Assembly: GCA_905234985.1 (NCBI GenBank)
Contig: CAJOJQ010000005.1
Span: 62,001-126,000, forward strand
DNA length: 64,000 bases
Origin: an uncultured Christensenellaceae bacterium
GTDB taxonomy: Bacteria; Bacillota; Clostridia; Christensenellales; Aristaeellaceae
Reading direction: 5' to 3'
A program made the position numbers and the translations under genes. The notes beneath the pieces were generated by a model. That model made no database searches, had not been told where the DNA came from, and saw only the letters and a list, made by a program, of their open reading frames with translations. Below, in pieces: positions 17,069 to 61,012 of this stretch (position 1 is its first letter; every line of letters begins with the position of its first letter).

Positions 17069-17182
17069 AGGTAGGAAGTAGGAGGTAGGAGGTTGATATA
17101 GTCTGTGTAAAAATCACAAAGTCGGCGGAAAGAAGATTAGGGGGAACAATATGAAAAACCTCCTACCTCCTACTTTCTACCT
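17069..17182. repeat. inverted-repeat element A (low-complexity arms)
   Basis: Arms 17069-17094 and 17157-17182 are 26 bp long with one mismatch and consist of reiterated GTAGGAG-like units. The 62-bp interior begins GATATAGTCTG beside the left arm. It starts 11 bp after the stop codon of the solute-binding protein gene and ends before the permease ribosome binding site. Elements B (38667-38774) and C (60912-61012) share the layout and the ATATAGTC(G/T)G core but have different arm sequences. Confidence 0.85.
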
Positions 17183-38637: not shown

Positions 38638-38666
38638 AAAAACCTCCTTTTCTGATGAAAAAGTGA

Positions 38667-38774
38667 AAAGCGGAAAGTGAAAAGTGAAAATATAAATGGA
38701 CAGCGTCCCTAGTGGCAGCCAACGGTATTGCCGACTATATAGCTCTCCACTTTCCACTTTTCACTTTCCACTTT
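38667..38774. repeat. inverted-repeat element B (low-complexity arms)
   Basis: Arms 38667-38690 and 38751-38774 pair over 24 bp with two mismatches and are built from GAAAAGTG / GGAAAGTG units. The core GCCGACTATATAG (38730-38742) lies beside the right arm and is the reverse complement of the core in element C. The right arm begins at the stop codon of the GNAT gene (38774-38776). Confidence 0.85.
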
Positions 38775-39340
38775 TATGTTCGCGGATCGCCGCGCAGAAT
38801 GGCGTACAGCGCCACGTCCACATATTTGCCCTTGTTTTTCACCCGCTGGCGCAGGACGCCCTCGTACTGCATGCCCACGTGGGCCATCACCCGGCCGGAG
38901 GCGGGGTTGTCCACCTCGTGCTGGGCCTCAATGCGGTTCAGGCGCAATTCATGAAAGCCGAATTCCACCACCCGCCGCAGGGCCTCGGTCATAACGCCAT
39001 GGTTCCAGTACTCCCGGCTCAGGCTGTACCCCACCTCGGCGCTCTTGTATTCATGGTTGACCCACATAAAGCCGATGGTGCCAATCATGCGACCTGAATC
39101 CTTCAGCGTGATGGCGAAGGAACCGGGCAAACCCTGGCGGTACTGCCGGATGGCCCCCCGCAAGAACTGGCGGGAATCCCGCAGGGTTTCGTGGGTGTCC
39201 CACAGCACGTAGCGGCTCACCTGGGGATCTTTGGCGTACGCGAACAAATCCCTGGCGTCGCTCATGCGCAGGGGGCGCAAAATCAGCCGTTCCGTTTCCA
39301 GAGCAGGGAGCTGGGAAAAAATTCCCTGAAAAAACTGCAT
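38774..39340 (-). CDS. RimJ/RimL-type GNAT acetyltransferase
   Basis: A 188-residue GNAT protein beginning ...LETERLILRPLRMSDARDLFAYAKDP, the classic RimJ/RimL opening. The acetyl-CoA strand region GTIGFMWVNHEYKSAEVGYSL and C-terminal NPASGRVMAHVGMQYEGVLRQ follow. The likely substrate is an N-terminal amine of a protein or a small molecule. It is full length. Its stop codon coincides with the start of element B. Confidence 0.88.
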   Translation of the reverse strand: MQFFQGIFSQLPALETERLILRPLRMSDARDLFAYAKDPQVSRYVLWDTHETLRDSRQFLRGAIRQYRQGLPGSFAITLKDSGRMIGTIGFMWVNHEYKSAEVGYSLSREYWNHGVMTEALRRVVEFGFHELRLNRIEAQHEVDNPASGRVMAHVGMQYEGVLRQRVKNKGKYVDVALYAILRGDPRT

Positions 39341-46900: not shown

Positions 46901-48349
46901 ATGCGCGATATGCTGCTGGTGCTGAATTTCGACAACGACGCCAGCCGGGCCGTCACGCGGAAGCTGCGTTCGGAAAAGGTTTTCTGCAAGATCGTGCCGG
47001 GAAATATTTCCCTGGAGGAAATTCAGCGCCAGGAACCCTTGGGGCTGCTGCTGGCCGGCGGCGTATCGGGCCAGACCCCCTCGGGGCTGGACAGCCGCGT
47101 CCCGCAGGCGAATATTCCCATCCTGGCCCTGGGCGACGCCGCAGGCCTCCTGCTGTCCATGTTGGGCGGCACGGTGGGCGATATCGTCTATCAGGGCGCG
47201 GTGATGCCCGTAAGCTACGCCGACTGTTCTCTTTTGGCGGGGATGGAAAGCGGGGAAAGGATGCTGCCCTGCGTCCGGGAATTTCATTTGCCGGGTCAGG
47301 TTCGCTCCCTGGCCTCCGTTCAGGAAACCGTGGTGGGCTTTGCCCACGAAAGCCTGCCCCTGTACGGCGCGCAGCTCCAGATCGAGCAGAACGACCCGGA
47401 AAGCTCCCTGATCCTTCGGAACTTCGCCCTGACCATCTGCGGCTGCACCCCCTGGTGGGACGACGACGCTTTCGTCAGCCGGGCGGTAGAAGAAATTCGC
47501 CGCGTGGCGGGGAATGGCCGCGTGGTGTGCGCCATGACCGGCGGGCTGGACAGCGGCGTGAGCGCGCTGCTTGCCCACAAGGCCCTTGGCAGCCAGCTCA
47601 AATGCATTTTCGTGGATACCGGCCTTTTGCGGGAGCGGGAGGGCGATGATTTTATCGCCTATTACCGGGACGAAATCGGCATGGATATCACCCGCGTTTC
47701 CGCCAAGGACAGATTTCTTGACGCGCTCAAGGGCGTCAGGGACGCGGAGGAAAAGCGCCGCGTGATCATCCGCCTCATCCAGGCCATCCTGCGGGAAGAA
47801 GAAGAAAAACTCGGCCCCATCGCCGCCCTGGTGCGCGGTACCAGCTGCAACGATATCATGTACGGCGGCGGCGCGCTCAGCCCCGCCCTTGGGGAACAGG
47901 TGCCCCTCATCGAACCGCTTCGGGAGCTGTTCAAGAGTGAAATTCGCCAAATCGCCGATTCTCTGGATATCCCCGCCGATCTGATTTCCCGCCAGCCCTT
48001 CCCCGGCAGCGGCCTGGCCCTGCGCATCTTAGGGGAAGTGACCGAAGAAAGGCTTTCCACCCTGCGGGCGGCGGACGCCCTGTTCCGGGGCGAGCTGCTC
48101 CGTTCCAGCGCGGCCAAGCGGCTGTGGCAGTACTTTGCGGTGCTGATCCCCATGCCCGGCTGCGAGGAAAAATCCGTCATCTGCCTGCGCGCCGTTCAAG
48201 CGGCGGAAAGAAGCCTCACCTACGCCGCCCGCCTGCCCTACGACGTGATGGAAAACGTGACCGAACTGATCCTGCGGGATCAGAAATCCGTGTGCCGGGT
48301 CACTTACGACCTGACCCCCGCCTACAAATATTCCGGGGTGGAATGGTAA
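46901..48349 (+). CDS. GMP-synthase-like protein with inactive glutaminase domain
   Basis: A 482-residue GuaA homologue. The C-terminal ATP pyrophosphatase is well kept: PP-loop TGGLDSG, CIFVDTGLLREREGDD, RVSAKDRFLDALKGV, and SRQPFPGSGLALRILGEVTEERL. The N-terminal class I glutamine amidotransferase domain is degenerate: the usual nucleophile block GICYG is replaced by ALGDAAG, and the FHPE block by LQIE, so Cys and His are lost while the Glu remains. It should therefore use free ammonia, or serve another role, rather than glutamine. The start is ATG 46901 behind AAGGGG. The intergenic 46825-46900 contains a GAATAAAA / TTTTATTC inverted repeat. A canonical guaA may exist elsewhere. Confidence 0.8.
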   Translation: MRDMLLVLNFDNDASRAVTRKLRSEKVFCKIVPGNISLEEIQRQEPLGLLLAGGVSGQTPSGLDSRVPQANIPILALGDAAGLLLSMLGGTVGDIVYQGAVMPVSYADCSLLAGMESGERMLPCVREFHLPGQVRSLASVQETVVGFAHESLPLYGAQLQIEQNDPESSLILRNFALTICGCTPWWDDDAFVSRAVEEIRRVAGNGRVVCAMTGGLDSGVSALLAHKALGSQLKCIFVDTGLLREREGDDFIAYYRDEIGMDITRVSAKDRFLDALKGVRDAEEKRRVIIRLIQAILREEEEKLGPIAALVRGTSCNDIMYGGGALSPALGEQVPLIEPLRELFKSEIRQIADSLDIPADLISRQPFPGSGLALRILGEVTEERLSTLRAADALFRGELLRSSAAKRLWQYFAVLIPMPGCEEKSVICLRAVQAAERSLTYAARLPYDVMENVTELILRDQKSVCRVTYDLTPAYKYSGVEW

Positions 48350-48352
48350 AAA

Positions 48353-48663
48353 GTTACCATTCACCCTTCGGGTTCATGGTAACGCGCGGGCGGGTATTGC
48401 ATACCCCCCGCGAATCCGCAGGCTCAATAGTCGCAAGTCCGCTTCATGCGGACATTGCTCCTGCCGATGAGATTCCCGCCACAGGCGGTCATCGGCGGTT
48501 CGTCCCCCCGCCCGGTTTTTCCTAAAATCCCTGCAGGATTTCCGGGCGGAAAAACCGCAAGGACGAAAAATTTCTTTCAGTTGTCTTCGCTCCTTTCAGT
48601 AATTTTTCGTCCTCGCGGCGTACACGCCGCCGCTGCGGATTTCAGTCGGGGGAGTACCCCCGA
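48353..48663. repeat. intergenic hairpin array 1
   Basis: A 310-bp non-coding stretch made of consecutive stem-loops. GTTACCAT/ATGGTAAC (48353-48383) is followed by a GC-rich stem (48385-48412). A multi-stem module runs at 48415-48506, inverted relative to its copy in array 3. Nested CCGCCCGG/CCGGGCGG arms follow. Then a 13-bp perfect stem AGGACGAAAAATT / AATTTTTCGTCCT (48560-48613) has a 28-base loop containing CTTTCAGT twice. An ATCCGCAG module with CGGCGT arms (48610-48642) and a TCGGGGG/CCCCCGA stem (48646-48663) end the array. No reading frame of note is present. Confidence 0.8.
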
Positions 48664-48729
48664 CACCCTCCGATAGTTACCGCCAATCTGTTTTGTTTTA
48701 CCGATACCTACTGAAGCAAGGGGAATTCT

Positions 48730-49533
48730 ATGCGTATTACCCATCCGCAAGCCGCGTTTCAGGGCATCGCGCCTGAAAATGTGTTCTTTGTCGCCAATGA
48801 CCAGCAGATTCAGCTGGGCACGGGCTATGTGATGCAGTTTTTCCAGGGCGAATTGTACCCGGAGCGCCCCAATCACCTGTTCCTGCAAATCGACTGCCAG
48901 CCCTCCGCCCGGGCGCTGATGTTCGGCGCGCTGCTGGCCCGGGCCTATCAATTGAAGGCCCAGAATCCGGGGCTGCCTGCCCGGCTGTACACCCAAGTGT
49001 CCCCGGACGATTTGCAGATGCTGCGGTTTTATGAATCCTGCGGCCTGAAAAACGACGACGGGGAAGATATGTTCCGTTTCCTGCCTCCTCCCGGCGTGCC
49101 CCAGGCCCCTATGGGCATGGTGTTCGCTTCCGTTCCTTTGCAGGACGAGGCCAGCCAGAACGCTTTCCTCAGCCGCGTCAACGCCCAGCGCATCCAGCCC
49201 TTCACCCGGGATTATCTGCAATTGTGGCAGCAGCAGCAGCACTTCATGGCCTTGGGGTTCTACCGCAACGGCCAGCCCGTAAGCGAATGCATCCTCACCG
49301 GCGCGGGCAGCTCCGCCACCCTGCTCATGATCTATACCCGTTCCGAATACCGCCGCCAGGGCATGGCGAAAAACCTGCTGGGCGCGGCCTCAGCCCTGCT
49401 GCGGGAGAGGGGCGTAAACACCATGTATACCCATATCTTCCGGCGAAACGCGCCTCAGGTGGCCCTGATGCGCCGCCTGAACGGCGCTTTTGTGCGCACC
49501 GTCACCGCCCTGCCGGGGATGAACCTGGATTGA
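48730..49533 (+). CDS. GNAT-family acetyltransferase (two-domain)
   Basis: A 267-residue protein with two GNAT-like halves. The C-terminal half holds the clearer acetyl-CoA site (MIYTRSEYRRQGMAKNLLGAASALLRERGVNTM). The N-terminal half (residues 20-115) contains a similar helix (ARALMFGALLARAYQLK) but a weaker pyrophosphate loop. The substrate is unknown. AAGGGG precedes ATG 48730. It lies between hairpin array 1 and the AGE-family gene. Confidence 0.78.
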   Translation: MRITHPQAAFQGIAPENVFFVANDQQIQLGTGYVMQFFQGELYPERPNHLFLQIDCQPSARALMFGALLARAYQLKAQNPGLPARLYTQVSPDDLQMLRFYESCGLKNDDGEDMFRFLPPPGVPQAPMGMVFASVPLQDEASQNAFLSRVNAQRIQPFTRDYLQLWQQQQHFMALGFYRNGQPVSECILTGAGSSATLLMIYTRSEYRRQGMAKNLLGAASALLRERGVNTMYTHIFRRNAPQVALMRRLNGAFVRTVTALPGMNLD

Positions 49534-49573
49534 AGACGTTCACGAACACTTTACGAAAGAAAGGGGTATCGTC

Positions 49574-50779
49574 ATGGACAAGGCATTGCTGAAAGCGCAG
49601 CAGAACTGGATTCGGGAAGAACTGAACCGCAGCGCCGATTTCTGGATCAAAAACGGCTGGGATCGGGTGAACGGCGGCGTGTACACCTGCCTGGACCGGG
49701 AGGGCAAAATCTACTCCACCGATAAGAGCGTGTGGATGCAGGGCCGCTGCGCCTGGACGTACAGCTACCTTTGCCACTTGTACGGCAAAAAGCAGGAATG
49801 GATGGATTTCGCCAAGTCCTGCCTGGACTTCATGGAAGCCCACTGCATCAACCGGGAAAAGGGCAACCGGATGTACTTTACCGTAACCTTTGACGGCCAG
49901 CCCCTCCGCCAGCGCCGTTATTACTTCTCCGAGAGCTTTTACGCCATCGCCAACGCGGAATACTACGCCCTGACCGGGGAAAAGGTGTATTTGGACCGGG
50001 CCAAGCAGGCTTATGAGCTGTACTGGGGCCTGTTCCGGGGCCTCATCGACGACCCCGTGGGCATGGGGCCTAAAACCATCCCCGAAACCCGCACGGGCCG
50101 CAGCTTAGGCCTTGCCATGATCTACCTGAACATCTGCTCCGTCCTGCGCCGGTGCGACCCGGAAAATACCGCCCTGTACGACGAACGGGCCGAAATCTGC
50201 GTACATGACATTTTCGCCTACCACCACAAGCCGGAATTGGGCTGCACCCTGGAAAATGTGGGCATGAACGGCGAATTCCGGGGCGACGTGACCGAAGGCC
50301 GCATCGTGAATCCCGGCCACGACATCGAATGCAGCTGGTTCCTCATGGAATACGCCAACCACAAGGGTGATAAAGCCCTGCACCAGCAAGCTGAAAACGT
50401 GTTTAACCTCGCCATCAACGCGGGCTGGGACAAGGAATATAACGGCCTGCTCTACTTCATCGACGCCAAGGGCCTGCCCCCCGAAGCCTATGAGCATGAT
50501 ATGAAGCTGTGGTGGCCCCATAACGAGATCCTTATCGCCTCCCTCATGGCCTACCGGGACACGAAGGACGAAGCGTATTACGACTGGTTCTGCAAAACCC
50601 TGGATTATTGCCGCGAGGTGTTCTCCGATCCCCAGTACGGCGACTGGTACGGCTATCTCCGCCGGGACGGCAAGCCCACCATGCCCTCCACCAAGGGCAG
50701 CACCTTCAAGGGTCCCTTCCATCTGCCCCGCTCTCTGGCCATGACCGACCAGATAATCAGCCAGCTTTTGGCGGAATAA
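49574..50779 (+). CDS. AGE-family (N-acylglucosamine 2-epimerase-like) isomerase
   Basis: A 401-residue (alpha/alpha)6-barrel enzyme of the N-acyl-D-glucosamine 2-epimerase family. Visible marks are SVWMQGRCAWTYSYLC, RYYFSESFYAIANAEYY, the catalytic His in NPGHDIECSWFLMEYA, and the second His in KLWWPHNEILIA. It interconverts N-acetylglucosamine and N-acetylmannosamine, or isomerises cellobiose or mannose in relatives; the exact substrate is unknown. ATG 49574 has GAAAGGGG upstream. It is followed by a terminator hairpin. Confidence 0.88.
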   Translation: MDKALLKAQQNWIREELNRSADFWIKNGWDRVNGGVYTCLDREGKIYSTDKSVWMQGRCAWTYSYLCHLYGKKQEWMDFAKSCLDFMEAHCINREKGNRMYFTVTFDGQPLRQRRYYFSESFYAIANAEYYALTGEKVYLDRAKQAYELYWGLFRGLIDDPVGMGPKTIPETRTGRSLGLAMIYLNICSVLRRCDPENTALYDERAEICVHDIFAYHHKPELGCTLENVGMNGEFRGDVTEGRIVNPGHDIECSWFLMEYANHKGDKALHQQAENVFNLAINAGWDKEYNGLLYFIDAKGLPPEAYEHDMKLWWPHNEILIASLMAYRDTKDEAYYDWFCKTLDYCREVFSDPQYGDWYGYLRRDGKPTMPSTKGSTFKGPFHLPRSLAMTDQIISQLLAE

Positions 50780-50797
50780 CGTCCCTTTCAGCATCAT

Positions 50798-50819
50798 AAG
50801 ACCGGTTCCGACCGGTCTT
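50798..50819 (+). terminator. terminator of the AGE-family gene
   Basis: AAGACCGGT (50798-50806) and ACCGGTCTT (50811-50819) pair perfectly with a TCCG loop. Almost the same hairpin recurs at 51068-51089. Confidence 0.72.
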
Positions 50820-50846
50820 CAGACTGTCGAAAAACCCTGGGGAAGT

Positions 50847-51066
50847 ATGAAGGGGCCGCGGCCCCTTCATCAACAAATCCGCAGGCGGCGGCGTGTACGT
50901 CGCCGAGGAGCAAATGAAATTTGCTTCCGCTATCAATTTCTGGCCGAAAAATGAGCGTTTTCGCTTGCGAAAATGCCATTTTACAAGAAATTGATGCATC
51001 GAAGGAAATCGGAATCCTGTTTCCGATTTCCTTCGCAGGGTGTCGAAAATTCTTTTTCGACACCCT
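50847..51066. repeat. intergenic hairpin array 2
   Basis: Six further stems follow the terminator almost without a gap. A perfect 24-bp palindrome lies at 50847-50870, then 50886-50905 (9 bp with one wobble) and 50909-50925 (7 bp). A long imperfect stem 50932-50995 has outer arms ATCAATTTCT and AGAAATTGAT. Then 51000-51035 has a 15-bp perfect stem and 51037-51066 a 13-bp perfect stem. It shares the ATCCGCAG-CGGCGT module with array 1. Nothing in it looks coding. Confidence 0.85.
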
Positions 51067-51067
51067 G

Positions 51068-51094
51068 AAGACCGGCTCCGACCGGTCTTTTTTT
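51068..51094 (+). terminator. second terminator, T-tract followed
   Basis: AAGACCGG (51068-51075) and CCGGTCTT (51082-51089) form a stem followed by seven T on the plus strand, a strong rho-independent terminator ending array 2. Confidence 0.8.
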
Positions 51095-51102
51095 GTATTT
51101 CC

Positions 51103-51131
51103 TTGCGCGTCGGAGAGGATTCCGGTATAAT
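51103..51131 (+). promoter_or_regulatory. promoter of the split methionine synthase operon
   Basis: TTGCGC (51103-51108), a 17-bp spacer and consensus TATAAT (51126-51131) lie 32 bp before the first gene. The -10 covers an in-frame ATG at 51130, which fixes the real start downstream at 51163. Confidence 0.72.
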
Positions 51132-51162
51132 GAAGCAGGAATTGCCAGAAAGGACAGCGCCC

Positions 51163-51825
51163 ATGAACGTGGATGTGAATCAGGCCCTGCGCTACGCGGG
51201 CGTAAAGGAGCCGGAGGTCAACGCCCTGCGCGCCGCACAGCGGGCGGCGGAACAGGTGGAAAAGCGCGCTTCGCCCCGGTATACCTACCGGGTATTCAAT
51301 ATCGCGCACACCGAGCAGGGCGTTTCCCTGCCGGAGGCGGGATTGCTTCTGCCGGGAAAGCTCGCAGAAACCATGCTGGCGGACTGTAACCGGGCCGTGC
51401 TGCTGCTGTGTACCTTAGGCGCGGAATTTGACCGCCTGCTGCGCACCGCTCAGGCCCGGGACATGGCCCAGGCGCTTTATATTGACGCCTGCGGAAGCTC
51501 TTTTGTGGAGCAGGGCTGCGACGCGGCGGAGAGGGAAATCGCCGCCCGCCATCCGGGCCTGTACCTGACCGACCGGTTCAGCCCCGGCTACGGCGACTTT
51601 CCTTTAGCTTTGCAGCTCGATTTTCTTCGCACCCTGAACGGAGAAAAACGGTTAGGCGTCTGCGCCGCCCCCTCGTATCTTTTGAACCCCATGAAATCGG
51701 TCACGGCGGTGATCGGCCTTTCGGACAAGCCCCAGCCGGCCCGCATCCGGGGCTGCGCCTTCTGCGCCTTCAAACAAAACTGCGCTTTTCGGGAAAGGGG
51801 AATGACCTGTGCATCTTCAACCTGA
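51163..51825 (+). CDS. stand-alone methionine synthase activation domain protein
   Basis: A 220-residue protein resembling the cobalamin-dependent methionine synthase activation (AdoMet-binding) domain as a separate polypeptide: NQALRYAGVKEPEV, SLPEAGLLLPGKLAETMLADC, CTLGAEFDRLLR, RFSPGYGDFPLALQLDFLRTL and a C-terminal CAFCAFKQNC. The GYGD segment matches the RxxPGYG-type motif of the domain. ATG 51163 has AAGGA eight bases upstream. It overlaps the methionine synthase gene by 17 bp, and that protein lacks this domain, so the two work as a split enzyme. Confidence 0.85.
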   Translation: MNVDVNQALRYAGVKEPEVNALRAAQRAAEQVEKRASPRYTYRVFNIAHTEQGVSLPEAGLLLPGKLAETMLADCNRAVLLLCTLGAEFDRLLRTAQARDMAQALYIDACGSSFVEQGCDAAEREIAARHPGLYLTDRFSPGYGDFPLALQLDFLRTLNGEKRLGVCAAPSYLLNPMKSVTAVIGLSDKPQPARIRGCAFCAFKQNCAFRERGMTCASST

Positions 51826-54166
51826 CCGCATCACTTTATTGGACGGGGCCATGGGCACCATGCTGCAAAAAAAGGGCATGGAGCCGGGGACCGTGCCGGA
51901 GCTGCTGAATTTTACCCAGCCCGACTGGATCAAATCTATTCACCGGGCGTATTTGAACGCGGGCAGCCAAATCATTTACGCCAACACCTTCGGGGCCAAC
52001 CGCCATAAGCTTTCCCGCACGGATCGAACCAGCGCGGAGGTCATCGCCGCCGCCGTGGGACTGGCGAAAGAAGCCGCTCAGGGCACCGGCGCGTTGGTGG
52101 CGCTGGATATCGGCCCCATCGGCGAGCTGCTGGAGCCGCTTGGCACCCTGACCTTTGAAAGCGCCTATGATATTTTCGCCGAAATGATGGAAGCGGGGGC
52201 AAAGGCGGGGGCCGATTTGGTGGTGATCGAAACCATGACCGACCTGTACGAAGCCAAAGCCGCCCTGCTGGCCGCCAAGGAAAAGACCGGCCTGTCCGTG
52301 TTCGTCACCATGAGCTTTGAGGCCTCGGGCCGCACCTTCACGGGCTGCACGGCGGCCTCCATGGCCCATACCCTGACTGGCCTTGGGGCGGACGCCATCG
52401 GCGTGAACTGCTCCCTGGGGCCGAAGGAGCTGCTGCCCCTGGTGCGGGAGCTGCGCCGCCATACCGCCCTGCCCCTCATCGCCAAGCCCAACGCGGGCCT
52501 GCCCGACCCGGAGGATGGGCATTACGACCTGCCGCCAGAAGAATTTGCCGCCGCCATGGCCGATCTGATTCAGGCCGGAGCCACGATGGTGGGCGGCTGC
52601 TGCGGTACGGATGAGCGATACATCGCGGCCCTAAAAGAAGCGCTGCCCGAAAAACCCCCGGTCATCGCCGTCTCTCCCCCACCCTTGGTCTGCACCCCCA
52701 CCGCCGCCGTGACCTTAGACGGGGTGCGGGTGATCGGGGAGCGGGTGAACCCCACGGGGAAAAAGCGCTTTCAGCAGGCTTTGCTGGAAAACGATCTGGA
52801 TTATATCGTTTCCGTGGCCGTGCAGGAAATGGACGCGGGCGCGGATATTTTGGACGTGAACGTGGGCTTTCCGGGGGTGGACGAAAAGACCATGCTGCCC
52901 CGAACGGTGAAAGCCATTCAGGCGGCGGTGGACCTGCCCTTGCAATTGGATTCCGTGGATCCCGCCGCCCTGGAAGCCGCCCTGCGGGTGTACAACGGCA
53001 AGGCCGCCGTCAATTCCGTCAGCGGCAAGGACGAATCCATGGACGCAATCTTGCCCATCGTGAAAAAGTACGGCGCGGCGGTGGTGGGCCTGACGCTGGA
53101 CGCGGCAGGACTGCCCGATTCGGCTGAAAAGCGCTTCGCCATCGCGGAAAAGATTTTGAACCGCGCCGTGTCCTTCGGCATTCCCCGGCAGGACGTGTGG
53201 ATCGACTGCCTGACCCTCACCGTGTCCGCCCAGCAGGATCAGGCGGAAGAAACCTTAAAGGCCGTGCATCGGGTACGCACGGAGCTGGGCCTGCAAACCG
53301 TGTTGGGGGTCAGCAACATTTCCTTCGGCCTGCCCAACCGGCCCCTGATTACTCAAACTTTCCTGATCCGCGCCCTCCACGCCGGGCTGACCCTGCCCAT
53401 CGTGAACCCCAACCAGCGGGAGATGATGGACGCGGTGGCCGCTTTCCGGGTGTTAAGCGGCGAGGATCAGCAGTGCGCCGCCTATGTGTCCCGCTTTGCC
53501 CAGGCCCAGCCGGAAACCAAGGCCGCGCCCTCATCCCTCGCCTCCATGACCTTGGAGGACGCCATTCTGCGAGGCCTGAAAGCCGAAGCCGCTAAGCTGG
53601 CAAAGGAACTGCTGAAAACGGAAGCGCCCCTTTCCCTGGTGGAACAGCGGCTGATCCCCGCCCTGGACAAGGTGGGCCTGGATTACGAAAAGGGCGTGGT
53701 ATTCCTGCCCCAGCTCCTGTCCGCCGCCCAGGCGGCCCAGGCCGTATTCGAGGAAATCAAAGAACGCCTGTCCCGGGAAGGCGCGGAACAGGTGGTAAAG
53801 GGCAGGCTGATTCTTGCCACCGTCCAGGGCGATATCCACGACATCGGCAAAAACATCGTGAAAACCGTGCTGCAAAACTATGGCTACGCGGTGATCGACT
53901 TGGGCCGGGACGTAGCGCCGGAAACCATCGTGGAAACGGCGACAAGCCAGAAGATTCCTTTGGTGGGTCTCTCCGCCCTCATGACCACCACCCTGCCCGC
54001 CATGGCGGAAACCGTACGGCTGCTGAAACAATTGCCGAACCCGCCCTTCGTGATGGTGGGCGGCGCGGTGGTCACCCCGGAATACGCCCAGGCCATCGGG
54101 GCCGACGGCTACGCCAAGGACGCCCGGGCCGCCGCCGCCATGGTGCGCAGGGCGTTCGGAGAGTAA
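51809..54166 (+). CDS. metH: cobalamin-dependent methionine synthase lacking the activation domain
   Basis: A 785-residue enzyme that moves methyl groups from methyltetrahydrofolate through cobalamin to homocysteine. Residues about 1-280 form the homocysteine barrel with zinc ligands in GVNCS and GGCCG. Residues about 300-560 are the pterin-binding barrel (GERVNPTGKKRF, AVQEMDAGADILDVNVG). Residues about 575-785 are the cap and B12-binding domain with the DIHDIGKN cobalamin motif and VGLSALMTTTLPAM. The C-terminal activation domain of classical MetH is missing and is supplied by the preceding gene. It starts at a GTG after AAAGGGG. Confidence 0.92.
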   Translation: MHLQPDRITLLDGAMGTMLQKKGMEPGTVPELLNFTQPDWIKSIHRAYLNAGSQIIYANTFGANRHKLSRTDRTSAEVIAAAVGLAKEAAQGTGALVALDIGPIGELLEPLGTLTFESAYDIFAEMMEAGAKAGADLVVIETMTDLYEAKAALLAAKEKTGLSVFVTMSFEASGRTFTGCTAASMAHTLTGLGADAIGVNCSLGPKELLPLVRELRRHTALPLIAKPNAGLPDPEDGHYDLPPEEFAAAMADLIQAGATMVGGCCGTDERYIAALKEALPEKPPVIAVSPPPLVCTPTAAVTLDGVRVIGERVNPTGKKRFQQALLENDLDYIVSVAVQEMDAGADILDVNVGFPGVDEKTMLPRTVKAIQAAVDLPLQLDSVDPAALEAALRVYNGKAAVNSVSGKDESMDAILPIVKKYGAAVVGLTLDAAGLPDSAEKRFAIAEKILNRAVSFGIPRQDVWIDCLTLTVSAQQDQAEETLKAVHRVRTELGLQTVLGVSNISFGLPNRPLITQTFLIRALHAGLTLPIVNPNQREMMDAVAAFRVLSGEDQQCAAYVSRFAQAQPETKAAPSSLASMTLEDAILRGLKAEAAKLAKELLKTEAPLSLVEQRLIPALDKVGLDYEKGVVFLPQLLSAAQAAQAVFEEIKERLSREGAEQVVKGRLILATVQGDIHDIGKNIVKTVLQNYGYAVIDLGRDVAPETIVETATSQKIPLVGLSALMTTTLPAMAETVRLLKQLPNPPFVMVGGAVVTPEYAQAIGADGYAKDARAAAAMVRRAFGE

Positions 54167-54176
54167 AAAACCCTCT

Positions 54177-54547
54177 GGGGGCTTCTTCAGCCCCCATGCC
54201 CCCGAACCAGGGAGGTGACCTCCCTGGACCCACACTCAAGTCGCAAATCATCGCTCCTGGGCGGGCGGCAAAGCCGCCCACGGTGCGCGAAGCGCACCTG
54301 AAAAACGAGGATATGACCAGGAAAAAGCTCGCTTTTTCCCTGGCATTTTATCTTTTCCAAACAGGCGCATATCGTTTGTTTTTATGTGTTTGTAAATCGC
54401 CGGATGGGGTGCAGGGGATCATCCCCTGCCGCAGGGACGAACCGCCGATGACCGCCTGTGGCGGGAATCTCATCGGCGGTGAGATCAGCCGAAAGGGAGC
54501 AATCTCCCCATGAGGGGGAGTTGCGACCATTGAGGCTGCGGAATCAG
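54177..54547. repeat. intergenic hairpin array 3
   Basis: Consecutive stems include GGGGGCT/AGCCCCC (54177-54195) and CCAGGGAGGT/ACCTCCCTGG (54207-54227). GGGCGGC/GCCGCCC (54263-54279) and GGTGCGC/GCGCACC (54282-54298) follow, then an A-rich stem (54317-54343) and GCAGGGGAT/ATCCCCTGC (54411-54429). A module at 54434-54542 has an 11-bp outer stem (54441-54451 / 54470-54480), an inner CCGCC/GGCGG stem and a CTCCCC/GGGGAG stem (54504-54520). The module is the direct counterpart of the inverted copy in array 1. The 409-bp gap holds no gene. Confidence 0.85.
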
Positions 54548-54575
54548 GGGCCGCGGAGGTCCCTGAGGTCTTAGC

Positions 54576-60911: not shown

Positions 60912-61012
60912 AGAGTTGAGAGTGGAGAGTGAAGAGTTGAGATTGATATAGTCGGTCAAATATGTGTTAATCGCTATATCATCTCCACTCTCAACTCTCC
61001 ACTCTTCACTCT
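60912..61012. repeat. inverted-repeat element C (low-complexity arms)
   Basis: The arms begin as AGAGT(T/G)-type reiterations (60912-60943; 60981-61012; about 5 mismatches in 32). They continue into perfect TGATATAG (60944-60951) and CTATATCA (60974-60981). The core TGATATAGTCGG is shared with elements A and B. It lies 13 bp after the HAD gene stop codon. Confidence 0.85.

What the first reader, a model, noticed from the sequence alone, without database searches (positions are those of the whole stretch)
48353..54547. Three intergenic hairpin arrays sharing exchangeable modules
Three gaps within 6.2 kb (48353-48663, 50798-51094, 54177-54547) consist almost entirely of back-to-back stem-loops, six to nine each, many perfect over 8-15 bp. 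They share modules. A segment of about 44 identical bases (48463-48506 inverted; 54434-54477 direct) links arrays 1 and 3. An ATCCGCAG plus CGGCGT hairpin links arrays 1 (48610-48642) and 2 (50874-50909). The layout suggests a mosaic repeat family of structured units, not ordinary terminators. I know of no named family that fits.
Basis: seen in the sequence. Interest (0 to 1): 0.75.

Follow-up and report, generated by a model that had tools for sequence, protein, structure and literature searches.

The report
Mosaic hairpin mini-transposons duplicating terminators
The hairpin-rich gaps are miniature jumping DNA elements of gut bacteria that share building blocks with one another, and one kind is often found between two copies of a gene's whole stop-signal hairpin, as if inserting there copied it.

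Summary
All three gaps fold far better than shuffled DNA (z -9.0, -12.9, -6.7) and match tens of other places in the genome. They are repeats of mobile-element type built from shared modules.

Array 1 (frame F1) is a MITE: absent at the orthologous site in two related species; 10 of 14 F1 elements with both ends have perfect 8-bp target duplications.

Array 2 (frame F2) looks like a MITE of an IS1182-family transposon. 27 of 45 copies examined lie between direct repeats of 18-38 nt that are stem-loops, mostly terminator-like (control 0.15%). Published relative IS1272 deletes its target hairpin; whole-hairpin duplication was only proposed (PMC5678879). Two IS in the genus show it; 11 other transposase loci there and 10 more distant ones do not.

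Arrays 1 and 3 share M1, a 107-nt module with very strong covariation but little G·U, unlike tRNA stems, so its hairpins seem kept as DNA. In 297 genomes of the order it occurs only in this family. Its mobiliser, and F1's, were not found. Array 3's mobility is unproven.

The parts
48353..48709 (+). Array 1: F1-frame MITE, whole insert
   Evidence: Absent in G008 (flanks 94-96% identical, 4 nt left between 48352 and 48710) and G009 (87-89%, 26 nt left, with a solo hairpin); 5' end matches the F1 end pattern. Its own 3' end and target duplication are decayed.
48353..48383 (+). F1 terminal hairpin GTTACCATTCACCC..GGTTCATGGTAAC holding the terminal inverted repeat
   Evidence: Sequence; family ends and 8-bp duplications
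48415..48505 (+). M1 module (copy with a 17-nt internal deletion)
   Evidence: nhmmer and alignment
48506..48612 (+). Array-1 core hairpins (GCCCGGTTTTTCC..GGAAAAACCG; GGACGAAAAATTTC..GAAATTTTTCGTCC)
   Evidence: Aligned copies
48610..48642 (+). CGGCGTACACGCCG hairpin module shared with array 2
50798..50819 (+). Left copy of the target terminator stem-loop AAGACCGGTTCCGACCGGTCTT
   Evidence: 21 of 22 identical to the right copy; one copy only in G008 and in G009
50820..51067 (+). Array 2: F2-frame MITE, ends CAGACTGTCGAAAAACCC and (reverse) CAGGGTGTCGAAAAAG
   Evidence: 29 of 29 genus genomes have matches. The family's ends resemble the IS1182-family IS L435/L436; this copy's own ends do not fit the strict 20-letter pattern.
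51068..51089 (+). Right copy of the terminator stem-loop, followed by a T-run
54177..54563 (.). Array 3: hairpin element with M1 and a long core, at the same place in G008 and G009
   Evidence: own target duplication not established
54435..54542 (-). M1 module, full length
   Evidence: R1 score 129.3 bits (the sequence is in the model)

Best explanation
The arrays are non-autonomous transposable elements (MITE-like) of a clostridial genus whose named relatives come largely from ruminant guts. They are made of a mobile frame (terminal repeats) and interchangeable hairpin cores. F1 (array 1) moves by an unidentified transposase that makes 8-bp duplications. F2 (array 2) is mobilised by an IS1182-family transposase that recognises terminator hairpins by shape. 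It joins the element at the feet of the stem-loop on both strands, so gap repair copies the whole stem-loop and a terminator remains on each side. Cores and M1 are shuffled between frames by nested insertion or by recombination in shared hairpins. Shown: repeats, absence of arrays 1 and 2 in relatives, duplications, module sharing, an IS with matching ends and the same duplication, DNA-like covariation. Inferred: the enzyme acting on F2, cleavage at the stem foot, how modules move, and that array 3 is mobile.
For: F1: 14 elements with end complementarity of at least 10/14; 10 with perfect 8-bp duplications, 1 with 7/8, the other 3 with 6/8, 4/8 and 1/8 (C14 and L141 are one insertion seen in two genomes, so 9 of 13 independent). 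Array 1 is absent in G008 and nearly so in G009. Array 2 is absent in G008, where the epimerase gene is present, another element fills the gap and one terminator copy stands. F2: 27 of 45 copies between direct repeats of 18-38 nt, median 23, against 0.15% of 2000 mismatched flank pairs. All 27 repeats differ; 25 have at least half their letters paired, and 23 have a T-run after or an A-run before; fold z median -4.4. IS: L436 carries an open 476-aa IS1182-family transposase (NF033551, 431 bits, cut-off 270) between two copies of a 33-nt palindrome followed by T's; L435 lies between two copies of a 22-nt one. An end pattern drawn from them, CAGACNRTCRNCAAAGTCCC, is in 8 of 455 loci: the two IS and six F2 loci, five distinct. 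F1 frames with array-2 cores: 2 of 9 looked at have perfect 8-bp duplications, C19 GGAACATG and C75 ATCCTTGA.
Against: 18 of 45 F2 copies failed the duplication test; by eye most have a stem-loop on one side. L274 failed because its ends were mis-set there; one search gives it 21/21. Only five distinct F2 copies match the strict IS end pattern, and the window copy does not. In G009 array 2 is missing together with the whole epimerase gene, so that is not a clean empty site. No IS1182 transposase was found in the own genome (93% complete). Of 13 transposase-domain places in the genus, 11 show no exact 15-nt repeat at IS spacing, and 10 more distant IS1182-like places show none; many are cut, broken or of another kind. 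No F1 autonomous partner was found. Array 3 has neither an empty site nor a duplication.
Confidence: 0.74

Rival explanations
1. The arrays are structured non-coding RNAs (regulatory or riboswitch-like) that happen to be repeated; M1 is the RNA motif.
For: M1 has 33 pairs, 98.1% of cells paired, 20 pairs with changes on both sides, 0 of 500 shuffles, and conserved junction sequence.
Against: No Rfam family at gathering score; the best weak hit in the M1 region is Clostridiales-2, 19.7 bits against 58.6. G·U 33 and A·C 27 of 3863 paired cells, against 32 and 0 of 425 in 20 tRNAs. This leaves out the uncertain two-pair inner stem, which alone holds 36 G·U and 4 A·C of 251; with it 69 and 31 of 4114. 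M1 lies in many gene contexts.
Confidence: 0.1
2. The flanking terminator pairs are not target duplications: the element carries a terminator, or selection for two terminators duplicated it by recombination after insertion.
For: Terminators are useful at both sides; 18 of 45 copies lack a detected pair.
Against: The 27 repeats are 27 different sequences of 18-38 nt, within 0-6 nt of the element's edges except one that lies 16 nt away on one side. G008 and G009 have one copy of the terminator at array 2's place. Two IS show the same arrangement.
Confidence: 0.12
3. M1's covariation comes from templated correction of palindromes (hairpin arms copying each other), not from selection.
For: Few G·U or A·C intermediates outside the inner stem and near-perfect arms.
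Against: The 5-nt bulge, the position of a single bulged base and several junction bases are kept across two genera, which a pure correction process would not favour.
Confidence: 0.25

Closest known systems
IS1182 family, IS1272/TnSha1 (PMC5678879: abstract, outline, passages and part 1 of the Discussion read; PMC4923244: passages read)
   Same: Transposase family; target chosen as a hairpin, in several cases a terminator, without sequence consensus
   Different: IS1272/TnSha1 delete or replace the hairpin and give no target duplication; here the stem-loop is duplicated, the outcome drawn only as pathway b of a model in PMC5678879
BOX, RUP and SPRITE repeats of pneumococcus (PMC3049150, passages read)
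   Same: High-copy structured repeats; BOX is modular with lone modules; BOX and RUP have terminal repeats and target duplications
   Different: BOX is built of boxA/B/C; here frames with different ends share the same modules, and one frame lies between duplicated terminators
TIMEs, mosaic Tn3-derived MITEs (PMC4133298, passages read)
   Same: Non-autonomous elements that form hybrids
   Different: Tn3 ends, mostly 5-bp duplications, capture of genes rather than hairpin cassettes
REP/BIME with RAYT transposases (PMC2817692, search listing only)
   Same: High-copy palindromic units
   Different: M1 does not flank the RAYT-like genes examined; they have their own palindromes

Membership tests
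MITE (F1, array 1) | Terminal inverted repeats, short fixed target duplication, no transposase, many copies | tested here: met
   Family. The window copy itself has a decayed 3' end and no duplication.
MITE (F1, array 1) | Autonomous partner with the same ends | tested here: not met
   Exact end pattern in 5 genomes: no pair of ends 0.7-3.5 kb apart; draft assemblies, so weak
MITE of an IS1182-family IS (F2, array 2) | Ends shared with an IS1182-family IS | tested here: met
   strict 20-letter match in five distinct F2 copies; other copies, the window's included, are similar but do not fit it
MITE of an IS1182-family IS (F2, array 2) | Same target and target duplication as that IS | tested here: met
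   27 of 45 F2 copies and the 2 of 13 genus transposase places where both IS ends could be set
MITE of an IS1182-family IS (F2, array 2) | Mobilisation by that transposase | not testable with these tools
   Needs an assay
IS1272-type stem-loop replacement | Target hairpin lost, no duplication | tested here: not met
   Hairpin kept and doubled; one-sided copies exist too
Curated RNA family (Rfam 15) | Score at or above gathering cut-off | tested here: not met
   0 hits in the window
REP of a RAYT system (M1) | Repeats flank the RAYT gene | tested here: not met
   Of 20 Y1-transposase loci one has an M1 at E < 0.1, next to an IS200-like copy
BOX element | boxA/boxB/boxC sequence | not tested
   Only the architecture was compared, from PMC3049150
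Array 3 as a MITE | Terminal repeats with target duplication, or an empty site | tested here: inconclusive
   Present at the same place in G008 and G009; longer relatives have ~30-bp terminal repeats but no clear duplication by eye

The most novel reading that the evidence does not exclude
M1 is an independent mobile cassette recognised as folded DNA (single strand or cruciform). A structure-reading recombinase inserts it into unrelated transposon frames, tRNA 3' ends and gene ends, sometimes with long target repeats. That would make these genomes a hairpin-cassette exchange system in which transposon ends and bodies evolve separately.
Probability: 0.25. Interest if true: 0.85.

Novelty: new variant of a known kind. 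Interest (0 to 1): 0.62.

Why it matters
It gives many natural examples of a transposition outcome (whole stem-loop duplication) that was drawn in a model for an IS1182-family enzyme and that I did not find documented in eight relevant paper searches (open-licence papers only). It suggests how an element can sit in terminators with a terminator left on each side. It makes target choice by DNA shape testable with a small, defined element and an open transposase frame (L436). The shared M1 module suggests that bodies of transposons with different ends are exchanged, and its DNA-like covariation warns that strong covariation alone does not prove an RNA.

Tried and rejected
Structured RNA as the main reading: set aside on the G·U/A·C counts, no Rfam match and varied contexts. 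REP/RAYT for M1: rejected, because RAYT-like genes in genus g4 and G009 are flanked by palindromes of their own, mostly of GGGACGGTTC type, not by M1. Autonomous F1 element: not found with exact end patterns in five genomes. Phage carriage: 0 exact M1-pattern matches in viral contigs. Counting copies inside open frames (13 of 70 intervals) was not used, since spurious frames are common at this G+C. One search had strand errors for minus-strand loci and was redone; its array-to-array matches on window sequence stand. One genome-contig hit (L161, Salinispora) is probably chance and was not used. The M1 alignment A1 uses 54 of 60 non-redundant copies (of 104 full-length, 147 distinct hits) plus the two window copies. 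The flank test used 53 of the 74 M1 hits. The 40 F2 copies fetched were picked for near-full coverage from a truncated list.

Papers: PMC3049150, PMC4133298, PMC10969869, PMC9208149, PMC1525189, PMC4923244 passages only; PMC5678879 abstract, outline, passages and part 1 of its Discussion; others listings only. That IS1182 members are listed with long palindromic repeats in IS catalogues is my recollection and comes from no call; it may lower the novelty. That 'RUG' genome names mean rumen is likewise recalled.
Full report
CHECK. The three gaps fold far better than dinucleotide shuffles (z -9.0, -12.9, -6.7; of 12 random stretches 11 had z above -1 and one -4.0). The own genome (G000, 3.57 Mb, 97 contigs, 93% complete) has 52, 38 and 55 matching places for the three arrays. 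These are not copy numbers: they include partial, shared and inverted self-matches, and only 40 candidates were scored each time. 26 of 29 genomes of the genus match array 1, and 29 of 29 match array 2. Of 80 listed genome contigs records with the M1 pattern, all but one (Salinispora, probably chance) are titled as MAGs or uncultured genomes of Clostridia, Clostridiales or Oscillospiraceae, many from goat, sheep, buffalo or roe-deer gut (the scan stopped at its limit).

ARRAY 1, FRAME F1. Full copies show one design: a terminal hairpin containing the inverted repeat (GTTACTACTCAGCC..GGCTTCGTAGTAAC), a second hairpin in at least two versions, optional M1, core hairpins, a GTCAAGGGG..CCCCTTGAC-type hairpin and the 3' repeat GGCTGAGTAGTAAC. 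I took pairs of ends with at least 10 of 14 complementary bases, 110-650 bp apart. This gave 14 elements, all with array k-mers between the ends; 10 have a perfect 8-bp direct repeat, one 7/8, and three 6/8, 4/8 and 1/8. Two of the ten are the same insertion in two genomes. Array 1 itself is missing in G008 (only 4 nt lie between the bases matching 48352 and 48710) and nearly so in G009 (26 nt, including a solo GTTACTGCTTTGCAGTAAC hairpin). The window copy has lost its own clean 3' end. The exact end pattern gives no pair spaced like an autonomous element in five genomes; its reversed control never matches.

ARRAY 2, FRAME F2. In the window the element 50820-51067 lies between two copies of the stem-loop AAGACCGG..CCGGTCTT (21 of 22 identical), and only the right copy has the T-run. 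In G008 the epimerase gene before the gap is present, the gap holds a different element and one terminator copy. In G009 there is one terminator copy and no element, but the epimerase gene is missing as well, so that site is not a clean empty site. I fetched 40 near-full-length F2 copies with flanks and added the window copy and four others. 27 of 45 have a direct repeat at the element's edges, 18-38 nt, median 23, against 0.15% of 2000 mismatched left/right flank pairs. The 27 repeats are all different; 25 have at least half of their letters paired, and 23 have a T-run after the right copy or an A-run before the left one. Median fold z is -4.4, with three at -2.0 or weaker. So in these copies the repeated target is the hairpin itself, and its length varies with the hairpin. 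Of the other 18, most show by eye a stem-loop on one side; one (L274) was mis-ended in that script and has a 21/21 repeat.

THE MOBILISER OF F2. Searching the genus for DDE_Tnp_1_6 found 13 places in 11 of 29 genomes, none in G000. L436 (G011) has an open 476-aa transposase frame that scores 431 bits for NCBIfam IS1182 (cut-off 270) and lies between two identical 33-nt palindromes. L435 (G017), whose transposase frame is interrupted, lies between two identical 22-nt ones. The other 11 places have no exact 15-nt repeat at IS spacing; several are cut, broken or carry other kinds of transposase. The two IS start with CAGACCATC..CAAAGTCCC, and some F2 elements start with CAGACTGTCGACAAAGTCCC. A 20-letter pattern drawn from these finds exactly the two IS and six F2 loci (five distinct) among 455; the window's F2 ends are similar but outside it. 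In a 396-genome sample of the order, 10 further places match the L436 protein at E 1e-40 or better; five were looked at in detail, and none of the ten has such a repeat.

MECHANISM. IS1272 of the same family is published as choosing hairpins, several of them terminators, by structure, and as deleting or replacing them without duplication (PMC4923244, PMC5678879). [quoted passage not shown] F2 and its IS look like that branch. Shown: hairpin targets, hairpin duplication, matching ends, single terminator in relatives. Inferred: that the IS1182 enzyme moves F2, and that the target is cut as a cruciform or hairpin at its foot.

MODULES. M1 (about 107 nt) lies in F1, in the array-3 frame, in longer elements with ~30-bp ends, in a fourth frame that exists without it in G008, in an F2 copy of G004 (weak match, 34 bits), and alone. 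Array-2 cores also occur inside F1 frames; of nine such loci looked at, two have perfect 8-bp duplications (C19, where the left end is slightly short, and C75), so at least these moved as units. The same F1 insertion in two genomes differs by an internal stretch of about 105 nt, and one F1 sits inside a long-frame end. Exchange by nested insertion, deletion and recombination in shared hairpins is my inference.

M1 STRUCTURE. On 56 sequences a 33-pair structure has 98.1% of cells paired, 20 pairs changed on both sides and a covariation score of 0.294 against 0.101 in shuffles (0 of 500). On 70 distinct copies from genus g4: 98.6%, 28 pairs, 0.575 against 0.187 (that alignment was fitted to the model). 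Yet G·U is rare and hardly commoner than A·C: 33 and 27 of 3863 cells outside a doubtful two-pair inner stem, 69 and 31 of 4114 with it. In 20 tRNAs from the fetched loci it is 32 and 0 of 425 (ARAGORN may favour G·U over A·C). Strong covariation with little tolerated G·U points to selection or correction on DNA rather than RNA.

M1 DISTRIBUTION. In a 297-genome sample of the order the model hits 9 genomes, all among the 23 listed from the own family; none of the other 274 (strict filters, so weak matches may be lost). Two near-complete genomes of genus g4 hold 42 and 47 matches, weak ones included. In the g4 copies I read M1 is mostly alone, at gene ends, near tRNA 3' ends and in head-to-tail tandems. 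10 of 53 such loci have exact flanking direct repeats of at least 15 nt, up to 67 nt, against 6 of 600 mismatched pairs. At four tRNA sites its 5' end abuts a T-arm copy within 2 nt. M1 does not accompany the RAYT genes examined. Its mobiliser is unknown.

ARRAY 3. It is present at the same place in G008 and G009 with changed hairpins, so it is probably older than those splits. I could show neither an empty site nor a duplication, so calling it mobile rests on its repeats and relatives only.

VERDICT. A real mosaic of hairpin elements, mobile where it could be tested. The kind (MITE, IS1182-related) is known. The terminator duplication and the module shared across frames are the new parts.

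Noticed in passing
L347, L353, L355, L359, L360, L362, L363, L349: RAYT-like Y1 transposase genes (about 245-290 aa) in genus g4 and in G009 are flanked by palindromes, mostly of GGGACGGTTC/GAACCGTCCC type, whose other bases differ from gene to gene: a second hairpin system.
   Followed up: partly
L271:1501-1606 with flanks; also L317, L324, L325: Solo M1 next to tRNA genes, with a copy of the tRNA 3' end on the far side too (in L271 67 nt, terminator included).
   Followed up: partly
L311:959-1270 and L312:818-1027: Head-to-tail tandem M1 units with a period of about 104 nt in the near-complete genome G206.
   Followed up: no
window 17069-17182, 38666-38775, 60912-61012: Purine-rich inverted repeats such as AAAGTGAAAAGTGAAAA and AGAGTTGAGAGTGGAGAG; perhaps another repeat family, unlike the three arrays.
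   Followed up: no
L228 (G008), gap upstream of the metH-like gene and its neighbour: At array 2's site G008 has a different hairpin element (CTGGGGGAAACC..GGTTTCCCCCAG..CCGAGAAAGC); similar elements in G000 (C43, C28) carry M1 inside.
   Followed up: partly
L342 (G009), array-1 site: A lone 19-nt F1-type hairpin GTTACTGCTTTGCAGTAAC where array 1 is absent; perhaps a remnant of an earlier insertion.
   Followed up: no
window 46901-48349: GMP-synthase-like protein that scores below the GuaA cut-off (323.9 against 400 bits), so perhaps a divergent paralogue.
   Followed up: no
L273, L281, L264 (G170): In genus g6 a distant M1-like unit with a changed second half, in tandem in L273 and L281.
   Followed up: no
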